From assembly GCF_018873765.1 (NCBI RefSeq), contig NC_057922.1:12041563-12105562 (forward strand): a DNA stretch of 64,000 nucleotides, written 5' to 3'. The stretch comes from Telopea speciosissima. Its lineage: Eukaryota; Streptophyta; Magnoliopsida; Proteales; Proteaceae. Of the stretch, positions 354 through 44,815 are shown in pieces; the first letter of the stretch is position 1, and the number at the start of each line of letters is the position of its first letter. Made by a program: the position numbers and the translations under genes. Under the pieces are notes generated by a model that ran no database searches, was not told the origin of the DNA, and worked only from the letters and a program-made list of their open reading frames with translations.

Positions 354-3300
354 CTAGCTGGGAACACCGTTCACCAGCATTGCTCTTAAATCCTTCCTTA
401 GAATCTTGCCAGATGGAGCTTTCGGGATTGCATCCATGAAAAATACCCGTTTGATCCTCTTGTAAAACACCACCTGCACCAGTAGCAAACCTACATTTTA
501 GATTACCTTTGCCTTTGACCATACCTCTATATGTACATATTGAGCCAGTCTGGGCTGGGCTGGGCTGGGTGGGCCAAGATGGAACTAACTCAACTATGAC
601 ACTTTTAGATCTTGGACTGGTTTTGGGCTGTGAAACCCCATTGTCAGGTTGGACATGGACTGAGGTCCTTGGTCGTCAACCCCATCCAATTTAACCACAC
701 CCAAGCCCATTAATTTATGGGCCGGTTCGAAATTAGGCCCATTAAAATATAGGATTTGCAAGTTTTCAATGAGCATCTTATAATTTATGGGAGAAAACGC
801 TTATATTGACATCTTATATACCAAGCCTATAGTGAGATAGTAAGACGATATATTTAATGAGGGGAGAACGAGAGGAGGAGGCGTGTAATTCCTCTTTCAA
901 TAGGTTTGTTGTCAAGGTGGGTCGAGGTCAGCCCATTGGAGCTACTTTGAGGGCTAGGAGAATTGGGTCTCGGCCATAAAGGTTGTGGGCTTTTTATTCT
1001 AATTAGGTTGGGCTTGGGCTCTTGTGCCTCTATTGAACCCAGCCCAACTGAGATGCATACCTATTGATATCCATGCATGTTTTTGAATATTCATACCTGT
1101 TTGGAGATATAGTCCTTGATCTCATCTTCGGTGACATTATAACCGTTGGATCTCACGACAAATGCAACTGGAACCTCGCCGGTAGCTTCGTCTAACATAC
1201 TGGAACATGGTGAAGAAAACCGATCCATTGGAATCCAATTAATTCAATGATTTGGATCAGAACCAGTAAATATTTATAGTAACTACTAATTAACAATATT
1301 GTTAGGTGTGACTTACGGTACAACTGCAGCATCAGAGATTTTGGGATGGGTGATGAGAATAGCTTCGAGCTCAGCGGGGGCCACCTGGAACCCTTTGTAT
1401 TTGATCAATTCTTTCAACCGGTCCACGATGAAGATCTCACCATCATTGTTGATGTAGCCGATGTCACCTGTATGTAGCCAGCCTTCTTTGTCGATGGTTT
1501 TCTTTGTACCCTCGGGGTCGTTGAGATAACCTGAGCAAAAGAAAAGGGCACATATGTTATTTTATTTTATCTAAAAATTTCTAAGAAAAAGAATAAGGAG
1601 TGCATCCATCATTTTACGTGCGGCTGTGTCCGGAATAGGTACACGCCACGCTACAGTATCGGTTAGTGTTCTTTTCCCTTTTAAAAAAATAGTACTCTGG
1701 ATGATAAAGCTTGACCTTGGTCGCAATTAGGGTTGTAACAGGGTTAGGTTGGGTTGGGCCTTTTAAAACTCCAACGCAACCTTGAGTCCACTTAGCTAGG
1801 CCCAGGCCCGACCTGGCTCTGACTCAATGCCAGAAAACTCCAACCCTGATCCGCCCTTAGGATCGGGCCTGGCTGACCCTGATTGACCTTGACCATGGAG
1901 GAGAAGGGAGATGCATGATTGCAGGGCTGGCTACGTTGGGAAGAAGAAGAACAAAAAAATAGAAGAAGACAAGGTTGGGTTGGGTTAGGCTGGGGCAAAC
2001 TCAACCCGAGGCCTCTCAACCCTGATCCGATAAAGAAATTCTCAATCCTGATCCAGCCTTAGGGCCAAGGTATCTCAACCCAGGCTCTGTTCGAGCTTAG
2101 GATGGACCAAAGCAAGCTCGGCTCATCAGAGCCAAACTTGCATCCCTTAGTCGCAATTACCGCTAGATCTTTGACTTTTCAACTAATTACTTTAATTTGA
2201 AGATGTGTGAGACAAAATAAGAAGGGTCCAACAATTTCTCCTGTCTGCTTTTGCTTATGACGCATGAGTCTTCTCCAGTGATATGGTGGTGAACCGGGAA
2301 TTTCTTGGTGACCGTTAAACTACTAATTTAATTCAAATGGGAACCATATAATATACGTCAGCATGTCATGATAGTATCGTAATGGAGCACTATCTGATAA
2401 CTGAGCTATCAAGCGTAGAGTGGACCCTTCTACCAAAAAAAAAAGGTGTACAGAGCCCCAATCCCATGAGTGGGGAATATAGGCTAAGAAGAAGTGTAGC
2501 CACTTGATTAGAAGACTTCACATATTTCCCCATTTTCAACTCACAATACAACATAAATATCAAAATGGTTAAGATTTGAGTTAATATAAAGTGTAAATAA
2601 CTATTTTTATTTGAGAATGCAAAATAAACCTAGAAATCTAGAATGTTTTCAAAGAATGTATATCAAACTCACCCTAAAGTTGCAGAAAATTATTCAAAGT
2701 AATTGCACAATTACATGGTTCATATAGTTCTGTTATGTAGTGAGATAATGTTGTAATTCTAAGGATTGGATAGATAGGGCAAGATGAGAAATGCCCACGT
2801 GTTAAACTCTTGACTCAAATTTAATCATAAATCTTCCCATGTATGTCCATGCGATGTTCCATGCATTTTCTTTGTAACCTTGAATTTTTTTCAATGCTTC
2901 ACTTTGTCACTTGACAAACTCGATTTGTTTGGCCTAGTACTTCACATATGAATACACAATTACCTTGGTGACTATCTATTCACAAAATTTTGGACTAATC
3001 CAACGTATCACGTAGCTATAAATGAAATAGATCATATTGATAAGATTTTCTTTGTGGGTGGAAAATATTATAATATTACAAAAATTCCAATAAATTTTCT
3101 TAAAGTGGAATGGATTTTTTTATATAGAGAGATGTGTTCTCTATCCAGAATTGTGGCTCCTATGCCTACACAAGATTCAATCAACGCCCCTTTTTTGGTT
3201 CAATATATGGGGACAGAAGGGTTATTTTATAGGGATGAAGAGACATAAACAAATGGAACAGGAAAGTTCCTTCCATTATATATAATATTAGGGAAGGTTC

Positions 3301-6300
3301 GTTGAGCTGTTGCAAAGGGTATGCTGACATAGTGCATGACACCCTATGAACAAGTGCGTAACGCACTTGGTAGCTTGTGGTGCTTAAAAGCTCATTGCTA
3401 TCAACAGGTCTTGGGTTCAAGCTTCCTGGTTCACATCTTTCCTCCCCTCCTCCTCCTCCTCCTCCTCCTCCTCCTCCTTAACTATTCAAAAAAGAAAAAA
3501 TAAAGACACCCTCTCTGGATGTTTTCTTCTTACATGAAATAATTTCTCTGCCCTCATGATTATGAAGTTCTTCCTCCTAATTAGTGTGTTCCCCAATACC
3601 ACTTGCTCATAGAATCCTCTCACATAAGTTTATTAAACTTTAGGGGAAAGTTTTCATACACGGCTTACACGACCGTGTATGAAAACTTTTCCCAACTTTA
3701 AATTCTAGTTTAAATTCTTAATCTTCCTATTGGCACCTGAATGACCAAGACAGATGCAAGGTCATGTATCACATACACCAGTTTGTCAATTTAAATCTGC
3801 CACGTGAAAATTATCTGTATTAACCAAACTTAATTAAGCATTTCTTATCATTTCCCAAAAACTAATTAATAATAGTGGTGGCCGGAAGATATAATAATAT
3901 AATTGAGTGCAAAGGGTCAAAGATAGAGAAGTGATTTAGTGGGACTTGTTAAAAGCTATTGGGTTGAAAGTGGAGTCTCCATGCAAGAAAGAAAAAAAGA
4001 TGACGACCACATGAGGAGGAGAAAGCATCATTGTCTTCGGTCTACCAACCCCACCCAAATTATACAAAACGACAAATCCAATTAAAAACTAATCGGGAGA
4101 AATTAATTAAAGAGCTTAATTAGTTTTTTCTTTCCTTGTACGTGATGGATTCGTTGGTTGGTAATCAGTCATAAAAACCTAGAATATATATACACCCTAA
4201 AACTAAGTTGGAGTAGTTATAGCTTATGAGATAATTATGAGTTATCTTAGGAAGTGTTTAGTGGTATAAGTTGAAAACATTCAATTTTCGGGTCCATAAG
4301 CGTAAGGATTTCCAACCAACCAAAGACTTGTTATATATCTATATATATATATATATGAGTGTTGAGTTGATTAGATTGATTAGCATATCTATAATTATTG
4401 TTCTTTCTAATTAGTATTGCCATTTGCCAGCCTTAAAAGATGGTATATCCCATATTAAACTGTTAGTTGTTAGTTGATAATTACGTTCTCCCTGCTTTAG
4501 GTGGCTAGTCCCCCTCTTTTTAATCTTTCCACCTAATAGTGTTTCTCATGCATGTTAGCGGTTTATCTGGATTTATTGATGATTTTAATTTAATCAAAAT
4601 TTGTATGACCTCCAACCCCATTGTTATCACAGCTGGGCTTGTCAGATTATTAATTACAAGACAAATTAGTACATTTTATTTATGTCCAATTAGTGGTTCA
4701 ATTCAAGCAATGGACTAATCAATAGCTAACTTTAACCTCCCACACGATTAAAGTTTAATGACCGACTTGGATCTTATTCTCCAACTTCATATAGAAAGGC
4801 AAGAGTACGCCGCCCGCTCTAGGTACACTGAGTGGCCTAGACCAATGGGCGGATGATACACTTTAAGGGGGGGCCCAAGGGTGAGAAAGAGAGAGAGAGA
4901 GATAGACTTGGCAAAAGTATGCTAGTGGTATACCATAAGCTAGCACCCTATGTGTCTAGAACTCTTTTCCTCCTTTTAAGGGGTAAGAGAGTCATTTCAA
5001 AGGGTGAAAAGAAAGATAGATACATAGGGTGCATATGCTAGCAGCTTACGGTATACTGCTAGCATGCGCATCGCTCTCCCTTTTTTTTAAAAGGAAAGAG
5101 TTTTCTCTCTGAAAAAAAGAAACATCAACCGAGATGGGATTTCCGTCTTTCATAAGGGCAGGGAGATCATTTCGCCCCCATCTTGTATTTGAGCGCAAGA
5201 AACACGTTCCTTGACAAAATCCTTTTGCCCTTTTTTTTAAAGGCTCCCCCCCCCCCCCCAAGAAAACATCTGGTCTTTTTTTAATATCCCTTTTTAGACT
5301 TCCTAAAGTGGATAAATAGGTATTAAAACTTAAAAGAGTCATAGGGAGAAGCTAAATTACATACCTTTCATAATCTGGGTCCCTCTAACGCAAATCTCTC
5401 CCGACTGATTTCGGGGCAGCGAGTCACCAGTCTCCGGATCAACGATCTTCAACTCAGCGTTTCTAACCACAGACCCACATGACCCTGATGTTACATCAAA
5501 TGGTTCCTTCGCGAACGCCAAGCTCATCGTAACTGGCCCAGCCTCTGTCATCCCATATCCCTGTACGTAACATTCAAATTTTTTTCTTCCAAATTAAATA
5601 TTCTCTAACAATATAAATTTTTATTTTTTTTGAAAACTTCCCAAAATTTTATGGTTATATAAAAAAATAATTAAAAAGGTTACCTGGGCAAGCTTGGCAT
5701 TTGGAAGCTTAGCTCTAAAGGCATCTTCAAGTTCCTTCCCTATGGGTGCAGCACCAGAGATAACCATCCTAATCGACGATAAATCATAATTATCGACCTC
5801 ATTAGATTTACTAATAGCCAAGACGACCGGCGGAACCATCGGAGCCACCGTAACCTTATATTTCTCCACCAGCTCCATCAATAGCACAAGATCAAATTTC
5901 TGCATGATAAGAATCGTTGAGCCAACTCGGATCCCACCGAGTAACACCACAGTGAGAGCATAGATATGGAAGAAAGGTAACAAACCAAGTAACACATCTT
6001 CACTATGGAAATACAAGTTAGGATTTTCTCCATCCACATGTTGAGCAATACTTGTAATCAAATTCTTGTGACTCAACATCACACCTTTAGGTAACCCAGT
6101 AGTTCCAGATGAGAATGGTAAAGCAACGATATCATTGATTGGATCAAAATCCAAACTCGGCATGTCATTCTCGTCAGACTGAGTCAACTCGGAGAAATGC
6201 AAACAACCCTCTGGAGGAACCGATGAGTCGATACACATAACCTTAATGTCATTCTCTTGTGCTAATTCCTTCACTTTCTCAAAATAACAAGCTTGAGTGA

Positions 6301-6685
6301 TAATCAGTTTAGCATCAGAAGCTTTTGCTTGTTTTGCTATCTCGGCTGGTTTGAAGAAGGGATTAGCTGTGGTGGTTATGGCACCACGAAAGGAAGCGCC
6401 GAGGAAAGAGAATGCGAACTCGGGTGAGTTGGGAAGTAAAAGCATGATCACCTCACCTTTTTGAATTCCCAATTTGTTGAGACCAGTTGCTACTTTGCGA
6501 GAGATGAGCTCGACATCGGCGTAAGTGTAGGTTTTGCCTGTTGCACTGTCGATGAGACATGGGCGTGATCTGAATTTTGGTAAGTTTTGGAAACAATAGG
6601 AATGTAGAGGGAGATGATCTGAAATGTAAAGATCTGGGAGTTTTGATCTGTAAATGAACTCTTGTTCATCTTTTGCAGGCGCCAT
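354..6685 (-). CDS. 4CL: 4-coumarate:CoA ligase, copy A (five exons, complete, 544 aa)
   Basis: Activates 4-coumarate and related hydroxycinnamates to CoA thioesters through an acyl-AMP intermediate; a cytosolic enzyme of general phenylpropanoid metabolism. Exons on the minus strand are 6685-5684, 5560-5365, 1530-1317, 1199-1097 and 473-354, all with GT-AG borders, joining in frame to 544 codons plus TAG. The start is the ATG at 6685 ([10 protein letters not shown]), because upstream in-frame sequence has no ATG before the CT-rich leader. Visible motifs: AMP-binding box [10 protein letters not shown] at residues 192-201, GYGMTEAGP at 335-343, GEICVRG (box II, usually GEICIRG), and the C-terminal catalytic lysine in PSGKILRK. 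Oddities are in the acyl pocket: HIYALT instead of HIYALN (Thr245), Pro282 and Ile309 at the positions of Arabidopsis 4CL2 Met293 and Lys320, and GPVTMSL, one residue shorter than GPVLSMSL in copy B. KLAQ replaces the usual KLGQ at the exon 1/2 junction. Intron 2 (1531-5364) is 3.8 kb. No stop or frameshift; probably functional. Confidence 0.95.
1728..2149. mobile_element. hAT-type MITE in intron 2 of 4CL copy A
   Basis: The element starts TAGGGTTGTAA and ends TTGCATCCCTTA, so its ends are imperfect inverted repeats. It is flanked by a perfect 8-bp target duplication GTCGCAAT (1720-1727 and 2150-2157). It has no coding capacity. The ends resemble the TAGGGATGTAAA elements found near gene C, suggesting a divergent member of the same superfamily. 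Confidence 0.75.
3335..3478 (+). repeat. possible tRNA-derived SINE remnant with (CTC)n tail
   Basis: The stretch around 3360-3425 has a B-box-like GGGTTCAAGCTTCC preceded by an A-box-like GGTAGCTTGTGGTGC, the layout of a pol III promoter. It does not fold as a tRNA. It is followed by a clean CTC trinucleotide repeat (about 3445-3478). It lies in intron 2 of 4CL copy A. A SINE origin is inferred only from these two boxes. Confidence 0.35.
4918..5068. repeat. foldback MITE in intron 2 of 4CL copy A
   Basis: About 40-bp imperfect inverted arms: the left arm has GCTAGTGGTATACCATAAGC and ACCCTATGTGTCT, the right arm AGATACATAGGGT and TATACTGCTAGCATGC. No protein is encoded. A pre-mRNA of 4CL copy A would carry the hairpin. 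Confidence 0.6.
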
Positions 6686-7115: not shown

Positions 7116-7188
7116 CAGGGGAGGGGGGGGGGGAGGTGGTCATTTCACATATGGGGCCCAGGTGGGACCCAGCTGTGAAATGACCACC
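7116..7188. repeat. foldback repeat with perfect 15-bp core
   Basis: GGTGGTCATTTCACA (7135-7149) is perfectly inverted at 7174-7188. The similarity of the arms extends outward into ACAGGGG, interrupted by a G-run. The region to about 7255 also resembles 41100-41235, so this belongs to a dispersed family. Confidence 0.6.
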
Positions 7189-8655
7189 TTACCCCTGTTT
7201 TTGCTGTCGTTTAACAGTGCTGCACAGGTGCAGCTCTCGCCACAGCTGCATAAGATCCTTTTCCCTGCTGTCCCTGCTATGCATGCCACGTTCATGGTAG
7301 AGAAAAAGCACCCGGGCTTTATTAGGTTTTATCATCATTTACAAAAATAACCTCTAGTGCTTTTTCTTCTCTTGTGATGAAAATGTAGGTAAGGATGCAA
7401 ACTGATAGTTGAAAATCCAAATTCGATTTGTATTTGTTTTTTGTATTAGGGTATTGGTCAAAGGATATCTGAATTCAAATAATCTAGAATAATAAAATCC
7501 ATCAGATTCGAATAAATATCAATTAATAATAAAAAATTAAATATATAATGATCGTGAGGGTTCTTGAAGATTCAACAGGTTCTAGAGAATGAGAAAAATA
7601 ATAGTCGAAAATCTAAATTTGATTCGTATTTGTATTTGATCAGAAGATATTTAGATCATACCTGAATTCGATCTATTTACATCTCTAGGTCCTAAGGTTT
7701 CAATAAGCTTGTCAATCGGTTCGGTTCAATCTAAGAAAGTGCTAGTGTGAATCAAAACCAAACCAAATGAAGATTCGATTCTAAACTTTGATACTCAAAT
7801 CGAACTAGTTTGTTTTGATTTGGTTTTAATCCGCATTTGGTTCTATTTGATCCTATTCAGTTAGAGTGAACGGTTCTTAAATCAGAACCGTATTTTTTTA
7901 TTTTCGTTTCCTATATTCCATAACCAAATTTGGACCAAATTTATTTGATTCATTTCGACTAATTTGATTTGATTTGATTTTTATTTTTTGTTCCAATTCC
8001 AATTTGACATCTTTAGTGTCAAAGGATCTAAACTCACGTATGATTTGCCAGGTCTCACACGTTTAGAGAACAAGCCTGATACCTAAAAAGTCCAACATCA
8101 AAGTATTACATAATGGGATGATTTTTCATTTGATGATTTATGGGTATTATTGTTCTTTGGAGCATTAATTTGAAATTCTAATAAATTTCTTATATAGATG
8201 GGACTAAAAAATTTCAATCAATATCTTATTATAATTTCGACTATCATGTTATAAGACATTTTTCATATTTCACAAGAACTGATAATTTGACAGTTTGACA
8301 ATTATAAAGGCTTTTTTCATTGGGTCATCCAAGAACATGGTGGAAATCTTGATCTTATTTCCATTGACTTTTCAAACATTTTTAAAAACCTAGAGATTTA
8401 GATTATTCATGATGCATGGATACATAAATAATGTTTGCCAAAATTTGAAATCAACTAAAATATCCATTAAAAGATAAGGACAACTAAGGGATGATGAATC
8501 ATGGAACAGGTTCTACGTAAGGGTTGAGAGACTATATCCACAACTCGCTAGACAAATGTTGGAAACTTGAAACTATACTAACTTCTCGACTTAAGAAGAT
8601 AATTAAAAATAAAAAGGAAAAAAGAAATATGTACGGCAGTGTGACCTATGCCCAT

Positions 8656-15570: not shown

Positions 15571-18500
15571 CTAGTTGGGAACACCAGCTGCCAACTTTGT
15601 TCTTAAATCCTTCCGCAAAATCTTGCCAGATGAAGACTTCGGAATGGCATCGATGAAGAAAACCCTGTTGATCCTCTTGTAAAACACCACCTGCAAGCCA
15701 CCATAAACGGTAAAAAAATTCTGGTTTTAACAATGGGCAGAGGTTTGCTACGATGCTAAGGTGGGAAACTGCACCAATGAAAGGGCGGATGACCCACCAT
15801 TTATCTAAGAAGAGAGAGAATGTCTGTGTGGACCTCACGTCACATTATATGAAAAGGTGTGGGAAGAAATTCGCTTGACAAGTTACCACTTCTACCACTT
15901 ACACCTCCAGTTACAATTTGGGCCGGGCTTGGGCTGTGGAAGCCCATAGTTTGTTGCAATCCTGATTGAGATTGTTCTCAGTATGGGCTTGAGCTAGCCC
16001 TATAGGTGAGTCCACTTAACTGAATTGTTTCCATCTTAGTGATTATTGTATTGGGGAAATTAAATTCACCTGTTTTGAGATGTATTGCTTGATTTCATCC
16101 TCAGTGACAGTGACATCGTAACCGTTGGATTTCACAACAAATGCAACTGGAACCTCACCAGCAGCTTCATCTTTCATGCTGGAACCATGCAAAGGTAAGG
16201 TAATCAGAATCAAAGAATTAATCAAAATTGAGATCAGAACAGATAAAAACTTGAATCCATGGTTGAGCTAAATACGGGACTACAGCGGCATCGGAGATCT
16301 TGGGATGCGTGAGAAGCATCGATTCGAGTTCAGCAGGGGCTACCTGGAATCCTTTGTACTTGATTATTTCTTTCAATCTATCCACAATGAAGATCTCATC
16401 ATCCTCATCAACGTAGCCAATATCCCCTGTATGTAACCAACCCTCTTTGTCAATGGTTCTCTCTGTGGCCTCTGGATCATTCAGATAGCCTGAAGAAAAT
16501 GGCAAAAGGGGTAGATACGTCATTTCGTTTCCTTCCCTTTTTAATTTCTAGGATCATTTCTCATGGGTCGGGTCGGGTCGGGTCGGGTCAAATATGTGAT
16601 GGAGCTTTTGTATAACTGACATATTACTTGCGTCATAGGCTCATAGCCCACAAAGAATGTAAGGAACCTCAGAAAAATTATTATTCTGTATTATCCCTTT
16701 TTTGGGTTTGGTGAGGTAGTGGTGGACCTGGACCAACAGTTCTTTAACCTTTTGGCTTTTAGGATCCCCCAATAAATAGCCCATCAGGGCGTGGGCCCAT
16801 ATCCCGAATGTTGGTGGGTCATAGAACAATCTTGTCCGTTCAATTTATGCTTCATCATCAATCATAAAGACTTATGATTTTAAAGCTGAAAACAATGATA
16901 TCTGATGGGGACTACCACAAAGTTGGAGGAGGGTCCTTATTCTAAACCTATTAAACCTAGAAAAGTTGCCAATTGCTCAAAAGTTCATACTTTGATCCCT
17001 TCCCTTTTTCATCACTTTTGGAATATAAAAATTTTCTATGGTTGGTAAGCTCTCCATGTTTAGGTGACCTGCCTTTTATAAAATAAGTTCCACTTGGGTC
17101 ATCTTAAGGGACTTCATGAAAACATTTTCACTGTTTTCTGGTCCGCCCCATCTATGCTTGACCAAAAGCAAGACTTTAGTTATACTGTTAAGTGTTTAGG
17201 ATAGTGGATAGAGCCATGGTGAAGGAGGAATTCATTCATCGAAAGCCATCATTGTACGGGTGTCAAAATCAAATCAAAATTGTTTATTGAAATTGAATCG
17301 AGCTATTTATATTATGGTACAAGATTTTGAAGAAAAATTCGATTTCGTAAAATCTTGAGACGAGACAGTAGACGATACAGGATTTGTTCAAGATCTCGGT
17401 CAAGATCTCGTGGTATATCTCGATCTCGATTCAACTTGATCGAAAATCAAGCTATAAAAAGGCACTCAGCGAAACTTCGAGTTGATTTCGATCTCAACTC
17501 GAAATCTCGCCTCTCTCACTCTGCTATGAAGGAAAAACACTTGGAGGTGAGGGTTTTGGTGCTTACTTTTGGTAAATTTCACCTCAAATGAAGAGTAAAG
17601 CTTGAAAATTCAAGATTGAAGCTTCAATATCAAGAGAGGATTTTGGTGTTTATTTTTCATAGATTTATAATCAATACTTATTTGTTGACTATGTAGTTTT
17701 TATCTGTGATACAATGTCCACCGACACTCATTTTAGTACTAGCTTCTCAAATGGTAGGACTTGTTACACACTTACACTTGTATTTGTTTAATTTATGTCT
17801 CTTTTCAAGTTTTTAATAATTATTAACAAATCGCCAGACCATCACCATGTATGATTATGAATATGATGCCTAATGCTTAAATGATTTATGGTTTGATGTT
17901 TTTAATTCTTAATACTTAATTAAGTTGTTTTACATCTTTACTTTAATTATATGTGTTCTAAATATTGTGGGGAATAGCCTAGGGTAGAACTCACCTACGT
18001 CATAGACTACCAACTTAGGGTCTAAAGTCAAAATACCATTTTGGGTTTGAATTTATAAAAACTAATGTTTTCATTGTGTTTAGAAGGCCTAAAATAAGGT
18101 GGGTGTCAAGTTTTAGGACCTATCTCGGCCATATGGTCACTGAAACAGTGGTGAGTTTCAGTGACTATATGGCCAAGATAGGTCCTAAAACTCACCACTG
18201 AATTAAGACGGAAAAAAATACACTAACTCGCCGAGATCTCACCAGAACTCGGTTTCGTGGTCTAGCGAAACCAAGAGTGAAACCGAGATGTAAAACCTTG
18301 GTTTACATCAAAACTGTGAAACAATTAAAAAGTGGTTTATTTTTTTAGGAAAAAATATCTCTACTTGGAGGTGTTTCCTACGCCCTCTCACAAGGTACCG
18401 TGAGATGACGCCTCTGCCCCTTGGGTAAATACTCAAGAATGCTCACCCAATGGCCCAAACACTTGTCCAGAGACCATGCGACCAAGTAGAGATCTCTTGC

Positions 18501-21352
18501 CCATTTTTTTTTATTTTAAAAGTGAGACTATTTAGTTGAATGGTTTAAATCGAACCGAACCAATTAAAAACCATTTAAACCGAAACAAATATTAATAATA
18601 TGTAATGACAACAATTAACTATTAATGGTAACAATAAATAATAGTAAATATATAATGGTACAAATAAATGATTCTGTATTAATGGAAAAAAATGATTATT
18701 TAAAGAAAACATATAAGAATTCAATTCATACTTCCATTTCAATTAAAAAATAAAATAAAAGACATGTAATGGAAAGTAGCGGTTTGAATAAAAAATAATT
18801 AAAAAACCTTACAAAACCATTTAAATCGAAACCGTTTATTAAACGGTCCAATTTTTGTTTTACCTAAAAAACTTGCACCCAACAAAATCGAAACATTTAA
18901 CACCCTTATAATTAGATGGCCGGGTGTTTGAAACAATGAAGAGCATTTTTCACCTTCAACATATGCCCAAGCCCAACGGATTCGGACCCTCTCCTACGAG
19001 CCCAACACCCAAGGAGTATTCGATGAGTCATCCAACAGCATTGGACTGCTGGGTGTGCGGGGATGTGTGCCTGCATAGGATCCAATGCACATCCCGGCGC
19101 AGCCCATTGCCATTGGATGCCTCATCGGACACTCCCTAGGCTATGGGCTCGGAAGAGAGGAGCCTGATCCCCAACATATAGGGAAGAGTAATCAGTAATG
19201 AGAATTTTACCCAAAAAAATCAGTAATGAGAATATATACTCCTATTGAATCTTTCACCCATAGTGAAGGGGGGTAACTTTCGCCTATTACTTAAGCTTGA
19301 ACATGTCCTCCAAAAAATGGTTCTCCAAGCCGTTAGTAGGGTATGTTAGCTAGTCTACGTCTCTATGTCTATCTTTCTTCTCCTCACATAAGATGACTTT
19401 GCTGCACTGCTATGTGAGTTAATGTTTTATCACACCTCATTGATGTGTCCCTCTATGCCGCTTGCTCAAAGAGCTCTCACCCCTTGCCTTTTTTATCCTT
19501 AGTTAATGAGTTATCAAAAATGTAAAATTTAACCAGAATGAATCAAGTAATCAAATAGAAAAATGTCTAAATTCTATCAAATTTGATTTAAGATCTAGAT
19601 TATCCTAAATCAGGATCGGGATTTGTCTCGACTGATACTGATCCAGATTATCCTAAATCAGGTCGAATTGGACGGATTTACTTTTGTTTTTAAAAAAAAA
19701 TAATAAAATAGACTTTTGTAAACCTTTTTTACCCTTGGTTTGTATCGATCCACTGATACGGGATCACCCCAGAATTGATATCACTGTCTACCGATTCCAA
19801 TATGATTGGACGATCCAATACCGATTCCTCAAAGCATGATAAGATAGAAGGAACAAAGGATCATGATCTTCTACGGCGCATTGCCCGTAGCTGCCTGTGC
19901 GGCCCAGACAGAGCGCCGCACACAATGTCTACCTTACCCCTGCCCGAGCGGGGGTAAGGTAGACATTGCGCACGACGCTCTGTCTGAGCTGCACAGGCCG
20001 CTATGAACAGCACGCCATGGAAGATCTGTATACAGGAACAAATCAGAACATATATATACATACCTTTCATGATTTGGGCCCCTCTGATGCAAATCTCTCC
20101 AGCCTGATTAGTGGGTAGCGAAGCTCCAGTCTCTGGGTTGATAACCTTCAACTCAGCATTCCTAGCAACAGTTCCACATGCTCCAGGCTTTATATCAAAT
20201 GCTTCCTTTGCAAATGCTAGGCTCATCGATAGAACGGGCCCAGCCTCTGTCATCCCATATCCCTAATCATGGTATTTATATATAATCTTAACTCATTATA
20301 ATCTTAATTATCAAAATTAAATACAATTAATTCAATAAAAATTATGAAATTAAGAAATGTACCACCTGTCCAAGCTTGGCATTGGGAATCTTAGCTCTAA
20401 AAGCATCTTCAAGCTCCTTCCCCATAGATGCAGCCCCAGACTTCACTAATCGAATCGACGATAAATTGTAATTATCGATGACCGTACAGTTGGTTATCGC
20501 TAAGATGATTGGCGGCACCAATGATGCCACGGTAACCTTATATTTTTGTACAAATTCCATTAGTGTACAAATTTCAAATTTAGGCATAATCAGAATCGCC
20601 GCGCCGACTCGTAACCCACAAAGCAGAACCGAGTTGAGTGCATAGATGTGGAACAAAGGCAACACACATAGCAACACATCTTCACAATGGAAATTCAAGT
20701 TAGGGTTTTCCCCATCCACCTGCTGAGCCACACTAGTGATACAGCTCTTGTGAGTCAACATAACCCCTTTCGGCAACCCGGTTGTCCCGGACGAGAACGG
20801 TAGCGCCACGACATCTTCCGGGTTGATATTTACAGTCGGCAACTCATTCTCATCCAACTGAGTCAACTCGGTGTAATTTAAACAATCCTCCGGGGCCGAG
20901 TCAGTGCACACAATCTTAATATCATTCTCTTGAGAGAAATTCCTCACCTTCTCAACATAACAAGCCTGTGTAACAATGAGCTTAGCATTGGTGGCTTTTG
21001 CTTGCTTTGCTATCTCTGCCGACGTATAGAAGGGATTTGCGGTGGTTGTGATAGCACCACGATATGAAAGGCCAAGGAACGTGAACACAAACTCGGGCGA
21101 GTTGGGTAGCAAAATCATGATCACTTGACCTTGTTGGATTCCGAGTTTGCTGAGTCCGGTGGCAACTTTACGGGAGATGAGCTCCACGTCAGCGTAAGTG
21201 TAAACTTGACCGGTTGGACCATTGATCAGACATGGGCGAGAGCTGTATTCGGATATGTTTTGGAAACAATAGGAATGGAGAGGGAGATGGTTTGGGATGT
21301 AAATATCTGGAAGCTTTGATCGGTAAATAAACTCTTCTTTCTTCTTCTCCAT
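15571..21352 (-). CDS. 4CL: 4-coumarate:CoA ligase, copy B (five exons, complete, 542 aa)
   Basis: Same reaction and pathway as copy A. Exons on the minus strand: 21352-20366, 20262-20064, 16489-16276, 16178-16070 and 15690-15571, joining in frame to 542 codons plus TAG. The start is the ATG at 21352 ([10 protein letters not shown]). [10 protein letters not shown] spans residues 187-196; [22 protein letters not shown] and the final SSSGKILRK lysine motif are present (SSSGK where copies A and C have APSGK). Pocket positions equivalent to Arabidopsis 4CL2 Asn256, Met293 and Lys320 are Asn240, Ser277 and Lys304, so Asn and Lys keep the family state and Met is replaced by Ser. Exon 4 is 109 bases against 103 in A and C, because DVTVTEDE carries two extra codons from a 6-bp duplication. 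The exon 3 donor is GTATTT, weaker than GTAAGT in A and C. Intron 2 (16490-20063) is 3.6 kb. No disruption; probably functional. Confidence 0.95.
16562..16590. repeat. GGGTC microsatellite in intron 2 of copy B
   Basis: Five-base unit GGGTC repeated about five times, 70 bases into the intron side of exon 3. Confidence 0.7.
18111..18200. repeat. compact foldback with 36-bp arms in intron 2 of copy B
   Basis: Arms 18111-18146 and 18155-18190 are inverse copies matching at 34 of 36 positions around an 8-base loop. The loop region reads CAGTGGTGAG, and its exact inverse CTCACCACTG follows directly after the second arm (18191-18200), giving a competing second hairpin. Confidence 0.75.
19871..20020. 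repeat. GC-rich long hairpin beside exon 2 of copy B
   Basis: Near-symmetric inverted arms of about 70 bases around a 10-base loop at 19941-19950. The inner 20 bases pair almost perfectly (for example ACCTTACCCC with GGGGTAAGGT) and the outer parts are 60-90% paired. It starts about 45 bases inside intron 2, next to the exon 2 donor at 20063. Reading through it in the exon 2 frame meets no stop for about 60 codons. Confidence 0.7.
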
Positions 21353-23241: not shown

Positions 23242-26200
23242 CTACTTGGGAAAACCAGCTGCAAGCTTTGCTCTTAATTCTTTCCGTAAGATCTTGCCAG
23301 ATGGCGCTTTCGGGATGGCATCGGTGAAGAACACCCGGTTGATCCTCTTGTAGAACACCACCTTTTCCATTGAAAAAAGAAAATCTGTAAGAAAATTTTT
23401 CCCCAAACTACTGATTTGCCACTGAGACATCTAGGGTTATACTTGGGCTGGGCTTGCTCAGAACCGGGCTGATCCAATTGGCAAGCCCATTTGGCCTGGT
23501 TCATGCCGGCAACTAAAATAGGCTTGGGCTTGATGGATCCTATGGTCTTCTTTATTGCAGATATGTTTGGTACTCACCTGCTTTGAGATATATTGCTTGA
23601 TGTCATCCTCCGTTATCTCGTAACCATTGGATTTCACAACAAATGCAACTGGAACCTCACCGGCAACTTCATCTTTCATTCTGAAACATTAAGTAACACG
23701 AAGATCAGAATCCGGCTTTCTCAGAACTGACAAAATGTTAGAGTAAAGAGGACTTACGGGACTACAGCCGCATCGGATATTTGAGGATGAGCAATGAGCA
23801 TGCCTTCAAGCTCGGCGGGAGCTACTTGGAACCCTTTGTACTTAATTATTTCCTTCAATCTGTCCACAATGAACATCTCATCATCATCATCGATGAAGCC
23901 GACATCGCCGGTGTGTAACCAACCTTCTTTGTCAATGGTACTCTCCGTGGCTTCAGGATCATTAAGGTAACCTGAACAAATTCAAAAGGTCAGATGTATC
24001 ATTTTCACAGCCAATTCTTAAGTACCTCGATTGGCCTATCAACTAAATCCATGTATTAGATTATGGGCCAAGAAATGCCCTACTTCATTCATGCATGGTC
24101 TTTCAGCCAGGCCCATTAAGCCCATACGACTTTAGCAGTGGACCGGGCTAAAGGGGGAAAAAAGCCATTCCTGAATCTTGATTGTGGGTAGGTACAAAAG
24201 AAATTGGGTATTTTCTATCGGACGGCCTAGAAATAGCCACTTGGAGATGATTGTAAGCACTCATTAGTTAGGCCTTGTGGAAGCATTAAGGGTCCTTGCC
24301 CCATGTTGTCAAAGTCAATACTTTGATATTTTCCCCTTTCAAGACTTTTGCAATACAAATTGTTGGCTGTTACGCTATTCTTGATACTGGTGGGTAGGTG
24401 AGGAATGTGGTCAACAATCGCACTTGTTAAGAAGAGCTCACCAACCATGCAAGGTGGAGGTTGAGTATATGAGATTTCTTTTATTTATTTATTTATTTAT
24501 TTATTTATTGTTGGACATATTTATCCATAATTAAGCATAATATCTTTTTACAAATGTTAATAAAATAATAATGACATTAATGATTAATTTATGTGTTTTT
24601 CTTAATTTTTATTGATTTATTTTTCCTTTTCTTACTTTCCAAACATAGATTTAGTTCAATATAATTTGTTTATTGACTTTAGGATCAAGTTTCCCTTCAA
24701 GCCACGATGAAGAGAAAATCACTTAAGCCACGACATCCAAGCCTTGGATGGAAATGAGAAAGAGCACTTTCGACCACATACAATAAACAGGTGTGAATTT
24801 AATGATGAAACCGACCCTCCGAAATCCAATCATGGGTAAGTATACTTTTAAGAAAAGGAAAAACATCCTACTTGGTGGCAAGAAACTTTTTATTAAATTT
24901 TAGGCAAAAGGTTAGGTTCCGTACACGTTCCTATTCTCTCTCGCACATGAGGTTGTTGAAATGACAAATCCTCATAACTGATATGGAATTGAAATCCTTT
25001 ATTATGCCTGTGGAATTGTGTACTCATAGCTTTAATATTTTTGACGACGTCTAACCCAAAAACTTGAGGTTCAAGATGGGGAGACATTTTCCTTAAGGTC
25101 ACAAGCCTAACAACTATATACTACTCGACTGATATGCGGCTAAAATCTCCCATCTTTATCATTCAAATCTAACCTCATGTTTTCATGAGAAGTGTTTAGG
25201 GGGTATTTTTTGGTTAAAAAGTGTTTAGGGGGGTTATGGGTAAGATAAGTAATATTTGTTAAAAAAAATTTGTGAAGGCATGGAAACCTTACGCCTAAAA
25301 AAATGAATGGAATGAAATTAAAAAGGTGATTTTACCTTTCATGATCTGGGCCCCTCTAATGCAAATTTCTCCAGGCTGATTTCGGGGTAGAGTGACACCT
25401 GTCTCAGGATCAAGGATCTTCAAATCGGCATTCCTGACAACGGTCCCACATGATCCTAATTTTATATCGAACGGCTCCTTTGCAAAAGCGGAGCACATTG
25501 ACAACACTGGTCCCGCCTCTGTCATCCCATAACCCTGTTGTGTACCATTCAAAGTATTAACACATTGATAATTGGGTTTTCTTAATCTTACCAAAGCAAC
25601 CTCATATAGTGTTTACACAAAAAAAAAAAATCAACCTCACAAGTCATAAGTACTTCATTTAGACTAACCCCTTGCCCCTCCCCAAAAAAAAAAAAAAAAA
25701 AAAATAGTATACCATTGTTTTGGTATCAGAAATCAAGCAACTAAAGAGCGAGTTAGCTTATCATAGATCTAGAAGTAATGTTTGAGCTAGCTCATTTACG
25801 ATCACTCTTTCCTGATGGTCGAGTTGATCTACAACCATCCTTGTGCGTTAGTATGCTTTGACACAATAGCATGTTTATAGGTTTTGTACGTCTGACTCAA
25901 ATAGGGGCGGAAAGACTCTTCTTAACCACAATTTAGGTTCAACTTGATAAGGTTGAATTTGAATGGGATCAAATCAATATCAAACCATGGTCTTGAAAAT
26001 AGAATCTAGTGTACGATAAATCAAATTAGTATGTAATGACCATTGAAGAGGTCAAGCAAAAGAAATGGGAGAGTACGGATGAGGCTCCTCTATAGTGCGG
26101 TAGGATGTGTAGCGCACATCCAACGGCCAGTAGTGCTCAGGCACGTAGCCCAATACACAGGCCATTGGATGTGCATTACACGCCCTATCACAATACAAAA

Positions 26201-29132
26201 GATTCAAATCTGAAAGAATACAGACCGATGTTGAGGTTTAGAGCCTAATGGAGGACTATGGACTCCTCTCTTGTTTCTCTCATTGGAGTTCTCTAAGTCA
26301 TAAGAGAAGAGGCACTACCTATTTACAATTCATAATGGAGGGTTCCCATACACCCAAATTAGTTTTCGAGCATCATGGGAAACCTCCTTCCAAATTTTAA
26401 ATAAAAGCATATAATTTGTTGGCACTACTTCGAACACTATTTGACGATATCAAAATTTTAGGTTCACATTTCTCTTAACCCATGGTGAAGAGAGAATCTC
26501 TTCATCTATGGATTCTAGATCAATTCCCCACCAAATATGAACTCATCAGATCTGTAGTTGACTTTTCCCAAAACTACCCCACCAAATGCTAGACAATTAT
26601 AGAGAAGATGTCTTTGATCCAAGGAGATAAGCCTCCCTATTAGAAACTATGAGGAATAAATCAAAAAATAATAGATACAAATTAAGGTAATGATATAAAA
26701 ATATCATTAGTATGTGGTGATATGAAGAAAAAAATTTAGTCAGGTGCTGAAGAGAGAGAGAAAGGCTACAAGCCAAAAGTATATCACCTCGGAAAGCCTC
26801 AGCCTCTATGGGAAAGGCAAATTTTAATTCCTTGCTACCAACCAGTGTTTAGAAAATAGTTTTTGAGTGAGGGATGAATGGGCCGCTTGTCACGTGTTTG
26901 TGTAGTTATGAATATCTCAACCACCAAAACAAAAAAAAAGAAAGAAAGGAAAATAAAGACCAACCGTTAGGTATCACAAGCTTCCCCAATTCCCTATTAT
27001 GGTAGCCAACCACAAGAAGAGATTGCTATGTAAACTTCTACCAACCTACTTATATTACAAGACTCACGAGTCACGGCCAGACTTTCTTTAAAATCTATTT
27101 CTTTAAATAAAATTTGGGGAAGATATTCGTCAAGATTCTCATATCCACTCTTTCAAATAAGAGGAATAGGGGTATTTATGTCATTTTAGATGAATATTTA
27201 TATTAATTTAATTAATTTTAATATTGACCGTGCACATACACAGCTGTACATGAAAACTTTTATTATGTAGTAAAAAAAAAATTATTGCAAATAAGATTTT
27301 CTCAGGGACCACATTTATATGAAAAAGCAAAGAATTTTTTCTTTTTCTCTCATTCCTATTGCTAGCCCATAAGTAAGTAGGATATATAGCAACTAGGGAT
27401 GTAAACGGATCGGATTCGGATCGGATGTGATCGGAGCCGGATATTCCCTGGTCGAATACGGATACCTCTAAACGGATTCGGATGCGGATCGGATTCGGAT
27501 TTTCACCATCCGTTTACATCTCTGCCTTGTGTAACTGGACCTTCCTCCCCTAGCGGATACAATTCACTCTCAATCCATATCTCTTAGATCATGATTCTCT
27601 TTTCATCATATTCTAGAACTTATTTAATCTTCAAAACCTTGAAATCATTATTTACTTAATTTTTTATTATTAAGTATTCGGATTTTTTTCGGACGGATTT
27701 TAATCGAGTATTCGGATTATTTTCCGGATATCTCTAAACGAATACGGATGCGAATTCGGATTCGGATTTCGGTTATCCATTTACATCCCTAATAGCAACC
27801 CAAAAGGGTGAGTAAGGGTAGTGTCTAAGCTCCTAGAGGAAAGGGCGTCCAAAGAGAAAATTGCGGGAGGGGGACAAAGAGGAACACATCTTGCCGGAAA
27901 GAGAGTCAAACATGCAATCTCTCTCTAGGACTTAAGCCAATGCTCTATTTACGATGGGTAGCCATCACCACACAAAGTATGAAGAAGCCCTATATGCTTA
28001 TATAGCATAATATAGGCTTGGGGATTATTGAAACAAATATCAATGTTAAACATAGTAGCAGTAGTAGTAGTATTAGACATACCTGGCCAAACTTTGCATT
28101 GGGAAGCAAATCTCTAAGGGCATCTTCAAGCTCCTTTCCCATGGGTGCCGCCCCAGACATGACTTTCGTGATCGATGATAGATCGTACTTTGCCGCAACC
28201 GAGCTCTTGGTGATTGATAAAACTATCGGTGGAACCAACGGTGCAAATGTCACCTTATACTTTTGCACCAATTCCATCAAAGACACAATCTCAAACTTCT
28301 GCATGAGCAGAATCGTTGCTCCTACTCGTAACGCACACAATAACACAGTGTTGAGAGAGTAAATATGAAACAGTGGTAACACACATAGCAATACATCGTC
28401 AGTCGTTAGATACAAGTTAGGGTTTTCTCCATCAACCTGTTGAGCCACACTCGTTACCAATCCCTTGTGACTCAGCATCACACCCTTAGGTAAACCGGTG
28501 GTTCCCGATGAGAAAGGAAGAGCCACGATATCATCCGATGAGATCTCAACACTTGGCATCTCGTTCTCATCCGATTGAGTCAACTCGGAGAAATGAATAC
28601 ACCCATCTCGAGCCGAGTCAATACACACAATCTTAATATCATTCTCTTGTGCTAACTCCTTCACCTTGTCCACATAACAAGCTTGTGTCACTATCAATCT
28701 GACATTGGATTTCTTAGCTTGCTTTGCAATCTCGGCCGGCATATAAAATGGGTTCGCCGTCGTGGTCATGGCGCCGCGATATGAAGCCCCAAGGAATGCA
28801 AAGACAAATTCCGGCGAATTAGGTAGTAAATTCATGATGACTTGGCCTTGTTGAATGCCTAGCTTGTTAAGCCCGGCGGCAACTCTTCGAGAGATGAGCT
28901 CAACCTCTGCGTATGTGTGTATCTCGCCGGTGGAGCCGTTTATGAGACATGGACTTGAGCTGAATTGAGATATGTTTTCAAAGCAATAAGTGTGTAGTGG
29001 GAGATGGCTTGGGATGTAAATGTCTGGGAGTTTCGATCGGAAAATGAACTCTTCTTGCTTCGGCTTCATCGCTGGGGTTTCCGTCACCGGAACTGAGATC
29101 GGCACCTCCACCGCCACCGCCACTGGCTCCAT
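23242..29132 (-). CDS. 4CL: 4-coumarate:CoA ligase, copy C (five exons, complete, 561 aa)
   Basis: Same reaction and pathway as copies A and B. Exons on the minus strand: 29132-28083, 25534-25336, 23971-23758, 23680-23578 and 23361-23242, joining in frame to 561 codons plus TAG. I chose the ATG at 29132 ([10 protein letters not shown]); a second in-frame ATG at 29069 (MKPKQEEF) would give 540 residues and aligns with the starts of A and B. The frame stays open far upstream, but that part overlaps the TATA box and is probably untranslated. [10 protein letters not shown] lies at 208-217; [20 protein letters not shown] and PSGKILRK are present. Pocket equivalents of Arabidopsis 4CL2 Asn256, Met293 and Lys320 are Asn261, Pro298 and Met325. 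HIYSLN, with Ser, resembles class II (4CL3-like) enzymes, but class is not settled without a tree. Intron 1 is 2.5 kb (25535-28082), far longer than in A and B (about 0.1 kb). No disruption. Confidence 0.95.
24478..24510. repeat. (TTTA)n microsatellite in intron 2 of copy C
   Basis: Seven or more TTTA units in a row. Confidence 0.8.
26091..26195. repeat. foldback repeat in intron 1 of copy C
   Basis: Arms of about 36 bases: the left arm includes GCGCACATCCAACGGCC, the right arm GGCCATTGGATGTGC, with further pairing outward. Noncoding. Confidence 0.6.
27394..27791. mobile_element. hAT-type MITE in intron 1 of 4CL copy C
   Basis: Ends are perfect inverted repeats TAGGGATGTAAA / TTTACATCCCTA, flanked by a perfect 8-bp target duplication ATAGCAAC (27386-27393 and 27792-27799). 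The interior repeats GGATTCGGAT motifs. A second internal end-like motif (CCGTTTACATCTCT near 27510) suggests a nested or duplicated end. 398 bp, noncoding. Confidence 0.85.
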
Positions 29133-40150: not shown

Positions 40151-41677
40151 CCACGAAACTTGACTCGCAAGAAATTGCTGACTCCTTTAAGTGAATTCAA
40201 GTTAGATTTAGGATATATTGTCAAAGCTTAAATGTATTAGTGAATTCATAGTTCTAGGGCTTTACCCAAAAATAAAAAATTCATAGATTTAGCACTCTAC
40301 ACCACCTGGCTAATCAACCGAGTACGGTTCAATGGGAGTGTGAAAGTCCATGACATCCTGAGATCGCGAACCTACTGTACTGGCAAGGGTACCAGCCAAG
40401 CAAGCAGTGCTCTTCAAGAAAACTAATGTGGTCAAGACAAATCCTCTACGATGAGGGCATCACCCAATGAGCATCCAATAGTTGCGATGTTTGGGCTCCT
40501 TTGGCAAACTTAGGTTGTGTTTGATATGCATTCTTGAAATGCATTTCAGGTCGATTTTGCATAATTGTTTTTATCCTCTAAGAATGCGAAATCGACCTGG
40601 AATGCATACCAAATTGAGCCTTAGTCAAGAACACAAAAAAAAAAAAAAAGAACAAAGCAAGAAACAATCAATTGTGGGGTGGAGTAGCAATGCAAGGGGT
40701 GAGGGAGAGGGGGTGTGCCTAGAAGAAGAAGAGGAGGCGAATGAAAGGGATTTTCATCCTCTCAAGTGAGGTGCACTAAGCAATGCACATTTAGGCTGTA
40801 TTAGGATGTCTATTTTTATCATCCAAGAATGCAAAATCAACTTGTAATGTATTCTAAGAATGCATACCAAACACATCTTAAAGTGCATCCGATGGTGGCC
40901 ATTGCATTTGAGAAGATTAATTAAAATCCATAAATATGTTCTTGGCCACCGTTGGATGCACTTTAAAGGTGCATCGCACTTGAGAGGATAAAAAATCGAA
41001 AAAAGATGTGAGTTTTTACTTAAAATTTGATTTATATTTTACCCACCAAAGGATAAAATAAAAATAAAAAATAATTAACGGTGAGAGATTTTCAATGGAC
41101 CTGGCTCCTGTCCAGCCGTCCAGTCCCGCTAAACGACAGCAAAAAAACTCACCTGTGAAATGATCACTTTACCCCTATTTTTACTGCTGTTTAACAGGAC
41201 TGGACGCTCTAGCTCCCGCCACGGCTAGACAGAATCCTGATATATTTTCAACACGGTTTCTACATGACAATGCCAAGGGGTAGAGGCTACTTCGCTGCTC
41301 CTGAGTAGCAGCTATATTTTAACCATTCTCCGACATCATTCAAGATTCTAAGACTTAATCACTAAGTCTTTAAACAAGACTAAACTCACAGCGAATTATT
41401 TGAAAAAGTTACCAAACGGTCAGTTACATAAACCTTTAAAAGACACTAGTCTAGTCTATTTTAACCCAAAAAAAAAAACTAGTCTAGTCTACATAAGCTC
41501 CACATGCAGCTGTTTGTCTTGTTCATCACGCCACTCCTCTTCAGCTCCCAAGCAACTTTAGAGAAACCAATTAAGTTAGTTTTTTTAGCTTCTCTCAGAA
41601 TTTTCTTTCTTTCTTTTTCTTCGTCATCTGTAAAACCCAGAGACCACTCTCTGTTGCGTCGCTTCAATTCTCAAGAC

Positions 41678-42064
41678 ATGGGCTTAGACGACTGGTTACC
41701 ACTGAACCGCTTAAAGAGAGCTGTGAAGAAGGTGAGGTTTGTACTCAACTTTGATCTCAATCGATGGCGTTTTGCTTCTAATATCCGCAGATCGAAACAA
41801 AAGCGATTGAGCTTCAACGATCGGCCTGGATTGCAGGCGATAAACGACGATACCGACACAGAAGAAGTCATCGGCGGTGTTTCGCCGAGGAGGGCACTTC
41901 AAAGGACAATGAGCTCTCCAATGTCTTCTGATGAAGATATTGATAAGAGGGCAGAGATGTTTATTACGAATTTCTATAAGCAACTTCGAATGGAAAGACA
42001 GGTCTCACTGAATCTTCAGTACTGCAGAGTAGATAGCTTGAAGAGCACTCGATCGGATTCATGA
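41678..42064 (+). CDS. DUF761-family small protein, 128 aa, intronless
   Basis: The protein starts MGLDDWLPLNRLKRAVKKVR, is basic near the N terminus, has the segment SFNDRPGL in the middle, and ends in the DUF761 signature around DEDIDKRAEMFITNFYKQLR followed by MERQVSLNLQY. DUF761 (cotton-fibre-expressed type) is plant-specific and its biochemical role is unknown. The frame is open from an ATG at 41504, but the 58 extra residues are hydrophobic and unlike the family, so I prefer 41678. No nearby partner gene; plus strand, alone between repeats. Confidence 0.85.
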   Translation: MGLDDWLPLNRLKRAVKKVRFVLNFDLNRWRFASNIRRSKQKRLSFNDRPGLQAINDDTDTEEVIGGVSPRRALQRTMSSPMSSDEDIDKRAEMFITNFYKQLRMERQVSLNLQYCRVDSLKSTRSDS

Positions 42065-43600: not shown

Positions 43601-44090
43601 CATCAAGGAAAAAACACAACCATCTGTATCTATCATTTGGTCCTCTATATCCTTGATGTTTTTGAAGACATGCTCTAACTTTTCAAACTTCTCTCTCATT
43701 TTCTTTTCCCTATCAGTCTCAAAGGGTTCCCAAGGAGTATTTATTACGACGTCATCCTCCCCTTCTTCCAGGATTATCTATCTTGTGAGAACCTCAAGAT
43801 GTGGCTAAGGGCACCCCCGATGTAGAGGGTCCAGCGTGCTTACGATCACCTAGTGACACTGTCGCATTAGGCTTGGCTTGTTGTCTAGGAAAACTAAAGG
43901 AGTTGGGTCATTGCCTTCTTCATTTCGGCTGGCAAACCGATCTAGTCGAGGGGATTGGGGCATCACGATACTCAATTCCTATCAGGTACATGTCAACGAC
44001 AACAAGAAAATGTTCTTTGGGGCTATGTTTTGTGGGATTTGGCCAAGGGAAATTAAAAGATGATGAATAAGGATGATTCTGATGCTTTCT

Positions 44091-44184
44091 AAGTAGTAGA
44101 CAACACGTGGAGTCTATAAGAGCTGGCAATCTTATGTTATCACAAATGGTGGGCATCCCATGGAAGAGACACAGAGAGAATACT
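44091..44184 (+). repeat. left copy of a 94-bp inverted repeat pair
   Basis: Starts AAGTAGTAGACAACACGTGG and ends AGAGAGAATACT. The inverse copy at 47395-47487 has the same ends and is about 88% identical. The pair encloses 3.2 kb, including the poly-C tract. Confidence 0.8.
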
Positions 44185-44200
44185 AAGCCCAACACCCATT

Positions 44201-44490
<290 letters not shown>

Positions 44491-44509
44491 TAAATATAGG
44501 AGATATTGG

Positions 44510-44815
44510 AATCAAGGGGCATAGCAAGGATCAGAAATCATACCATCCGGAAGAGTGAGAACCCATTTATCGCGTCTTGTGTGAATTTGATTTTCATAGC
44601 CAATTTTCCATCTCAACTCCATTTTGAGAACCTTCTTACCCTCCATAATGTTTCTCCACGGTCACAACGGATTTGAACCCAGCTTAGCCTCGAGGAACTC
44701 GCATTTCAGAAAATAAATCGATTCCAAGAAATCTTAGCAAGAAGGGCTTTATTGTGCATTGTTGGATCTTTAAAACCGAAGCCTCCATTATATTTCTCCA
44801 CGCACACGACGGGTG
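44510..44815 (-). pseudogene. L1-type LINE ORF2 fragment
   Basis: The minus strand reads EKYNGGFGFKDPTMHNKALL then AKISWN, the block that follows the reverse transcriptase in plant L1 ORF2 (GGLGFKD...NxALLAKxxW). A stop follows soon after, and no other domain is attached. Confidence 0.55.

What the first reader, a model, noticed from the sequence alone, without database searches (positions are those of the whole stretch)
5365..5560. 4CL copy A lacks one residue in the segment that controls sinapate use
Exon 2 of copy A encodes [14 protein letters not shown], whereas copies B and C encode GPVLSM; exon 2 is accordingly 196 bases against 199. By position (35 residues after the Lys320 equivalent) the missing residue is at Arabidopsis 4CL2 Val355/Leu356. 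Known work on Arabidopsis 4CL2 and soybean 4CL1 showed that loss of a single residue there lets the enzyme accept sinapate, which most 4CLs reject. The natural 3-bp deletion in an otherwise intact gene suggests copy A is a sinapate- or bulky-substrate-specialised paralogue. The sequence difference is direct; the function is inferred.
Basis: partly seen in the sequence, partly recalled or inferred. Interest (0 to 1): 0.82.

Follow-up and report, generated by a model that had tools for sequence, protein, structure and literature searches.

The report
Plant 4CL trio with shortened pocket
A plant lignin- and flavonoid-pathway enzyme gene really has lost one amino acid in its substrate pocket, and two sister genes just outside the window share the loss, so a small gene family may accept bulkier substrates such as sinapic acid, a known kind of change that still needs an enzyme assay.

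Summary
Copy A (window 354-6685, minus strand, five exons, 544 aa) has exon 2 at exactly 5365-5560, 196 bases against 199 in B and C. It lacks one residue of the V-L pair at At4CL2 355/356; the shortened tobacco 4CL2 chain 5bsw aligns there without a gap, the full-length chain 5bsm with a one-residue gap. Two things were missed. Copy A is not alone: two more genes (D, E), about 12-29 kb beyond the window edge, carry the same deletion. A, D, E are one clade (100/99), dN/dS 0.17-0.18, A-D dS 0.74: shared, old, constrained. And all three have Thr for the Asn256-equivalent, which is Asn in the eight other natural sequences compared; copy A has Ile, not Lys, at 320. Best reading: a class I-type 4CL subfamily with a wider, less polar pocket, predicted to accept sinapate or similar bulky cinnamates. 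The mechanism is known from Arabidopsis and soybean (recalled). No activity was tested. New member of a known kind.

The parts
5684..6685 (-). copy A exon 1 (334 aa), AMP-binding core, FHIYALT (Thr245) and VISGAAP (Ile309)
   Evidence: donor GCCCAG|gtaacc
5365..5560 (-). copy A exon 2, [14 protein letters not shown], one codon short
1317..1530 (-). copy A exon 3
1097..1199 (-). copy A exon 4
354..473 (-). copy A exon 5 with stop; PKAPSGK motif
15571..21352 (-). copy B, undeleted 4CL (GPVLSMSL), exons 20366-21352, 20064-20262, 16276-16489, 16070-16178, 15571-15690
23242..29132 (-). copy C, undeleted 4CL (GPVLSMCS), exons 28083-29132, 25336-25534, 23758-23971, 23578-23680, 23242-23361; the start at 29132 is my choice, the frame stays open with an ATG further upstream

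Best explanation
Copy A is an intact class I-type 4-coumarate:CoA ligase and one of three neighbouring paralogues (A, D, E) that inherited the loss of one residue from the V-L segment of the hydroxycinnamate pocket, together with Asn256->Thr. Shown: the deletion, its place, open frames with proper splice sites, common descent, purifying selection. Inferred: the shorter segment makes room for the second methoxy group, so the enzymes activate sinapate (and probably ferulate and other bulky or less polar cinnamates) by the usual adenylation and thioester formation. Inferred and less sure: that sinapate is the substrate in the plant.
For: No gap against the shortened Nt4CL2 chain 5bsw at the segment; it scores 906.5 bits against 902.8 for the otherwise identical full-length 5bsm, a difference that is only the gap cost. 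Box I, the [13 protein letters not shown] and PKAPSGK motifs are in A, D and E (their catalytic roles recalled). Same deletion and same Thr in A, D, E and in none of the 8 other natural sequences compared. Clade A+D+E 100/99 in the protein tree, 100/100 in the CDS tree; two trees that part A from D and E are rejected, p-AU 7e-5 and 1.3e-5. dN/dS A-D 0.176, A-E 0.165, D-E 0.180. Literature: titles of Lindermayr 2003 (one-residue deletion of soybean 4CLs gives new specificities) and Hamberger & Hahlbrock 2004 (one sinapate-activating Arabidopsis isoenzyme) seen in reference lists, contents recalled. Arabidopsis 4CL5 gives sinapoyl conjugates in yeast (passages of PMC5117604); that 4CL5 is At4CL4 and has this deletion is recalled.
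Against: No assay, expression data or structure of these proteins. Copy A differs from the shortened mutant at other pocket places (Thr245, Ile309) and next to the gap (Thr345), so the effect may not carry over. Shared changes are not clearly enriched in the pocket once the deletion that prompted the search is left out (p 0.026 with it, 0.19 without). Other 4CLs of unseen sequence are reported sinapate-active (Isatis 4CL2; Robinia, title only). Box II is GEICVRG in A and GEICIKG in D and E rather than GEICIRG. dN/dS is somewhat higher than in the B-F and G-H pairs (0.132, 0.097).
Confidence: 0.62

Rival explanations
1. The three-gene clade is tuned to less polar acids (cinnamate, fully O-methylated cinnamates or benzoates) rather than sinapate: the deletion widens the pocket and Thr at 256 plus Ile/Met at 320 make it less polar.
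For: Asn->Thr at 256 is in A, D, E while Asn is invariant in the 8 others; 320 is Ile, Ile, Met. That a more hydrophobic pocket favours cinnamate is recalled from Schneider 2003 (not held). Arabidopsis 4CL5 is called active on hydroxycinnamates and benzoates (PMC5117604 abstract).
Against: Met or Leu at 320 is also in undeleted C, G, H and Nt4CL2; no activity data.
Confidence: 0.25
2. The deletion is tolerated and hardly alters specificity: A, D, E are redundant 4CLs with the ordinary preference for 4-coumarate, caffeate and ferulate.
For: Main motifs kept; the selection test says only that the proteins are constrained, not for what.
Against: The lost residue lies where the other 8 sequences are invariant, and it has stayed lost over an A-D dS of 0.74 with a second shared pocket change.
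Confidence: 0.2
3. Copy A is a decaying or mis-assembled gene.
For: None found.
Against: Open frame, AG/GT at all four introns, stop codon, dN/dS well below 1, same deletion in two other intact copies.
Confidence: 0.02

Closest known systems
Arabidopsis At4CL4 (At3g21230 in the table of PMC5083928), sinapate-activating isoenzyme
   Same: A natural 4CL reported to activate sinapate (title seen); a natural shortening of the same segment is recalled
   Different: One gene in Arabidopsis; here three, with Thr at 256. Its sequence could not be compared here
Soybean Gm4CL1 and one-residue deletion mutants of other soybean 4CLs (Lindermayr 2003)
   Same: Loss of one residue of the same pair linked to sinapate use (title seen, content recalled)
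   Different: Legume lineage; activity was measured there, not here
Tobacco Nt4CL2, shortened chain 5bsw (541 aa) and full-length 5bsm (542 aa)
   Same: Copy A aligns to 5bsw with no gap at the segment; 73% identity overall
   Different: 5bsw is an engineered form (recalled); it keeps Leu and Asn where A keeps Val and has Thr
Poplar Pt4CL1 (3a9u) and Arabidopsis At4CL1 (3tsy)
   Same: Same family and motifs; 72% and 68% identity to A
   Different: Both residues of the pair, Asn at 256, Lys at 320

Membership tests
bona fide plant 4CL (class I type) | Box [12 protein letters not shown] | tested here: met
   A, D, E all [11 protein letters not shown]
bona fide plant 4CL (class I type) | Box II GEICIRG | tested here: inconclusive
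   A GEICVRG, D and E GEICIKG: conservative variants, not the exact motif
bona fide plant 4CL (class I type) | groups with class I 4CLs | tested here: met
   A-F with Nt4CL2, Pt4CL1 and At4CL1 on one side of a 100/100 branch, G and H on the other (midpoint root). That G and H are class II is my reading; no named class II or 4CL-like protein was in the tree
bona fide plant 4CL (class I type) | catalytic motifs (His of FHIY, Lys and Gln of ELIKYKGFQ, Lys of PKAPSGK) | tested here: met
   present in A, D, E; roles recalled
bona fide plant 4CL (class I type) | ligates CoA to 4-coumarate | not testable with these tools
   needs recombinant enzyme
sinapate-activating 4CL with shortened V-L segment | one residue missing at At4CL2 355/356 | tested here: met
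sinapate-activating 4CL with shortened V-L segment | forms sinapoyl-CoA | not testable with these tools
   no assay
sinapate-activating 4CL with shortened V-L segment | common descent with At4CL4 or Gm4CL1 | not tested
   those sequences were not among what I could fetch; A-F group at only 82/88, and a tree with A, D, E outside the other class I rows is not rejected, p-AU 0.099

The most novel reading that the evidence does not exclude
An old three-gene 4CL subfamily in this lineage combined the segment shortening with Asn256->Thr to make a ligase for bulky, less polar cinnamates (for example 3,4-dimethoxy- or 3,4,5-trimethoxycinnamate) that ordinary 4CLs and the known sinapate forms handle poorly, feeding a lineage-specific phenolic pathway.
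Probability: 0.2. Interest if true: 0.55.

Novelty: new member of a known kind. Interest (0 to 1): 0.4.

Why it matters
Whether plants make syringyl units partly through sinapate has long been argued (recalled), and few natural shortened 4CLs are described. A three-gene clade in a plant outside the legumes and crucifers (a Proteaceae, if the size match holds) would be an independent or a very old case. Shortened and unshortened paralogues sit side by side in one 58-kb cluster, so the effect of the segment and of Thr at 256 on substrate choice can be tested directly.

Tried and rejected
Single-copy specialisation: rejected, the deletion is in three genes. Pseudogene or assembly error: rejected. 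Deletion as a splice-boundary shift: rejected, exon 2 begins and ends at the same codons in all eight genes. Separate losses in A and in D/E: disfavoured, two trees that part them are rejected (the test is strict only for groups named beforehand). Biosynthetic cluster: 8 ORFs of the region were scanned with Pfam; 3 matched (a PPR protein between E and A, a dihydroorotate dehydrogenase piece, a DUF761 ORF) and 5 did not; many more ORFs were not scanned, so a cluster is unsupported rather than excluded. AC-element-like sites within 1.5 kb upstream: A 8, C 9, E, F, G, H 4 each, B and D 1, against 1.5-1.9 in single-base shuffles; those of A are mostly repeated ACCAAAT/ATTTGGT, so I drew nothing from them. 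Pocket enrichment of shared changes: weak. NCBIfam on copy A: 108 families, the 25 shown are general or bacterial acyl-CoA ligases, all below their cut-offs. Structure prediction was not used: the gene is spliced, and the tool takes proteins that the DNA gives letter for letter, so I sent no joined protein.

Key papers not held: Schneider 2003, Hamberger 2004, Li & Nair 2015, Lindermayr 2003 (under a DOI that I recalled wrongly, under the right one). Their contents are recalled.

Full report
What was checked. Copy A was rebuilt as a five-exon gene on the minus strand (window 6685 to 354) with GT/AG at all four introns, coding for 544 residues. Exon 2 is 5365-5560, exactly as reported, 196 bases against 199 in B and C. 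At codon level A reads GGG CCA GTT --- ACG ATG where B reads GGG CCC GTT CTA TCG ATG.

Where the gap lies. Among solved structures the best chain is tobacco 4CL2 5bsw, 541 residues, which reads GPLAM at the place and aligns to copy A without a gap in the segment. The otherwise identical 542-residue chain 5bsm (GPVLAM), poplar 3a9u and Arabidopsis 4CL1 3tsy need a one-residue gap exactly there. That 5bsw is the published delta-V341 mutant made to accept sinapate is recalled (Li & Nair 2015; not held); the numbering fits (V334 of a stretch that starts at residue 8). Whether V or L was lost cannot be decided.

The genome. The window is C7:12041563-12105562 of an assembly of 822,943,500 bases in 1287 contigs. 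The size agrees with Telopea speciosissima, 823 Mb in a table of PMC13080361 (passages); the species is an inference from size alone. A six-frame search with exon 2 of copy A gave 18 matches; nine, at 63-100% identity, are 4CL-type. Eight are complete genes: A, B, C in the window; D (C7:12012725-12017858, minus) and E (C7:12023833-12030031, plus) beside it; F on C4, G on C11, H on C6. The ninth (C4, near 36982537) is a degenerate fragment and was left out of the gene counts. D and E carry the same deletion, GPV-TMC and GPV-TIC. So 3 of 8 genes have it, all within one 58-kb stretch in the order D, E, A, B, C.

Descent. A, D and E form one clade: 100/99 in the protein tree of 11 rows, 100/100 in the CDS tree of 8. 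Trees with A paired with B, or with D, E, B, C, F together without A, are rejected (p-AU 7e-5 and 1.3e-5). Whether the clade is nested among this genome's other class I copies is unsure: 82/88, and the tree with A, D, E outside all other class I rows is not rejected (p-AU 0.099). An old origin shared with other plants' shortened 4CLs is thus open. By Nei-Gojobori counts A-D dS is 0.74 and A-E 0.82, more than for B-F (0.64) and G-H (0.59), pairs on different chromosomes that may be genome-duplication pairs (my inference). dN/dS is 0.165-0.180 within the clade against 0.132 for B-F and 0.097 for G-H: constrained, a little less than the others.

The pocket. At the twelve At4CL2 pocket positions (list recalled from Schneider 2003; M293 and K320 also named for At4CL2 in a passage of PMC11223281), A, D, E share two departures from residues invariant in the eight other natural sequences: the lost residue, and Thr for Asn256. 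In all, seven columns are alike in A, D, E and differ from an otherwise invariant residue; two of the seven are pocket positions (p 0.026, and 0.19 without the deletion that prompted the search). The second pocket change is suggestive only.

Mechanism. Shown: position, shared descent, kept motifs, constraint. From known work (titles seen, contents recalled): removing one residue of this pair in soybean 4CLs and At4CL2 gives sinapate use, and At4CL4 is the natural sinapate-activating isoenzyme of Arabidopsis. Lack of sinapate use is reported for mulberry Ma4CL3, Peucedanum Pp4CL1 and both Selaginella 4CLs (passages); sinapate use is reported for Isatis 4CL2 (passages) and Robinia (title only). 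Inferred: A, D and E activate sinapate or acids of like size. The role in the plant is open.

Print. Ten paper searches listed no title or abstract start about 4CL genes with this deletion in Telopea or other Proteaceae. The library holds open-licence papers only, some lists were cut (one search showed 6 of 10), several Macadamia papers that name 4-coumarate were not opened, and of the papers opened I read passages, not whole texts.

Verdict. It is broader than reported (a three-gene clade with a second pocket change), and as a phenomenon it is known.

Noticed in passing
C7:12012725-12030031 (L020, L021), outside the window: Two more intact 4CL genes D and E, head to head with about 6 kb between their starts, 93% identical, with the same deletion.
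   Followed up: yes
L025:8497-8692 (C4:36982497-36982692): Degenerate 4CL exon-2 piece with a frame break, about 46 kb from the intact copy F; no other 4CL exon was found in the 20 kb around it.
   Followed up: partly
L027 (C11, copy G): Copy G seems to have an extra intron inside exon 3 with a GC rather than GT donor.
   Followed up: partly
window 19865-20026: Near-perfect hairpin-like inverted repeat (two 79-nt arms, 80% complementary, 4 nt apart) in intron 2 of copy B; looks like a small mobile element.
   Followed up: partly
window 7128-7195: Inverted repeat (two 33-nt arms, 85% complementary, 2 nt apart) about 450 bases upstream of copy A's start.
   Followed up: partly
window 53403-53756 (+): Dihydroorotate dehydrogenase piece (Pfam DHO_dh).
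   Followed up: no
window 41483-42061 (+): ORF with a DUF761 'cotton fibre expressed protein' match.
   Followed up: no
L022:5595-7199 (C7:12037157-12038761, minus): PPR-repeat protein gene between E and A.
   Followed up: no
window 43923-44555: Long G/C tract that gives poly-Gly and poly-Pro frames.
   Followed up: no
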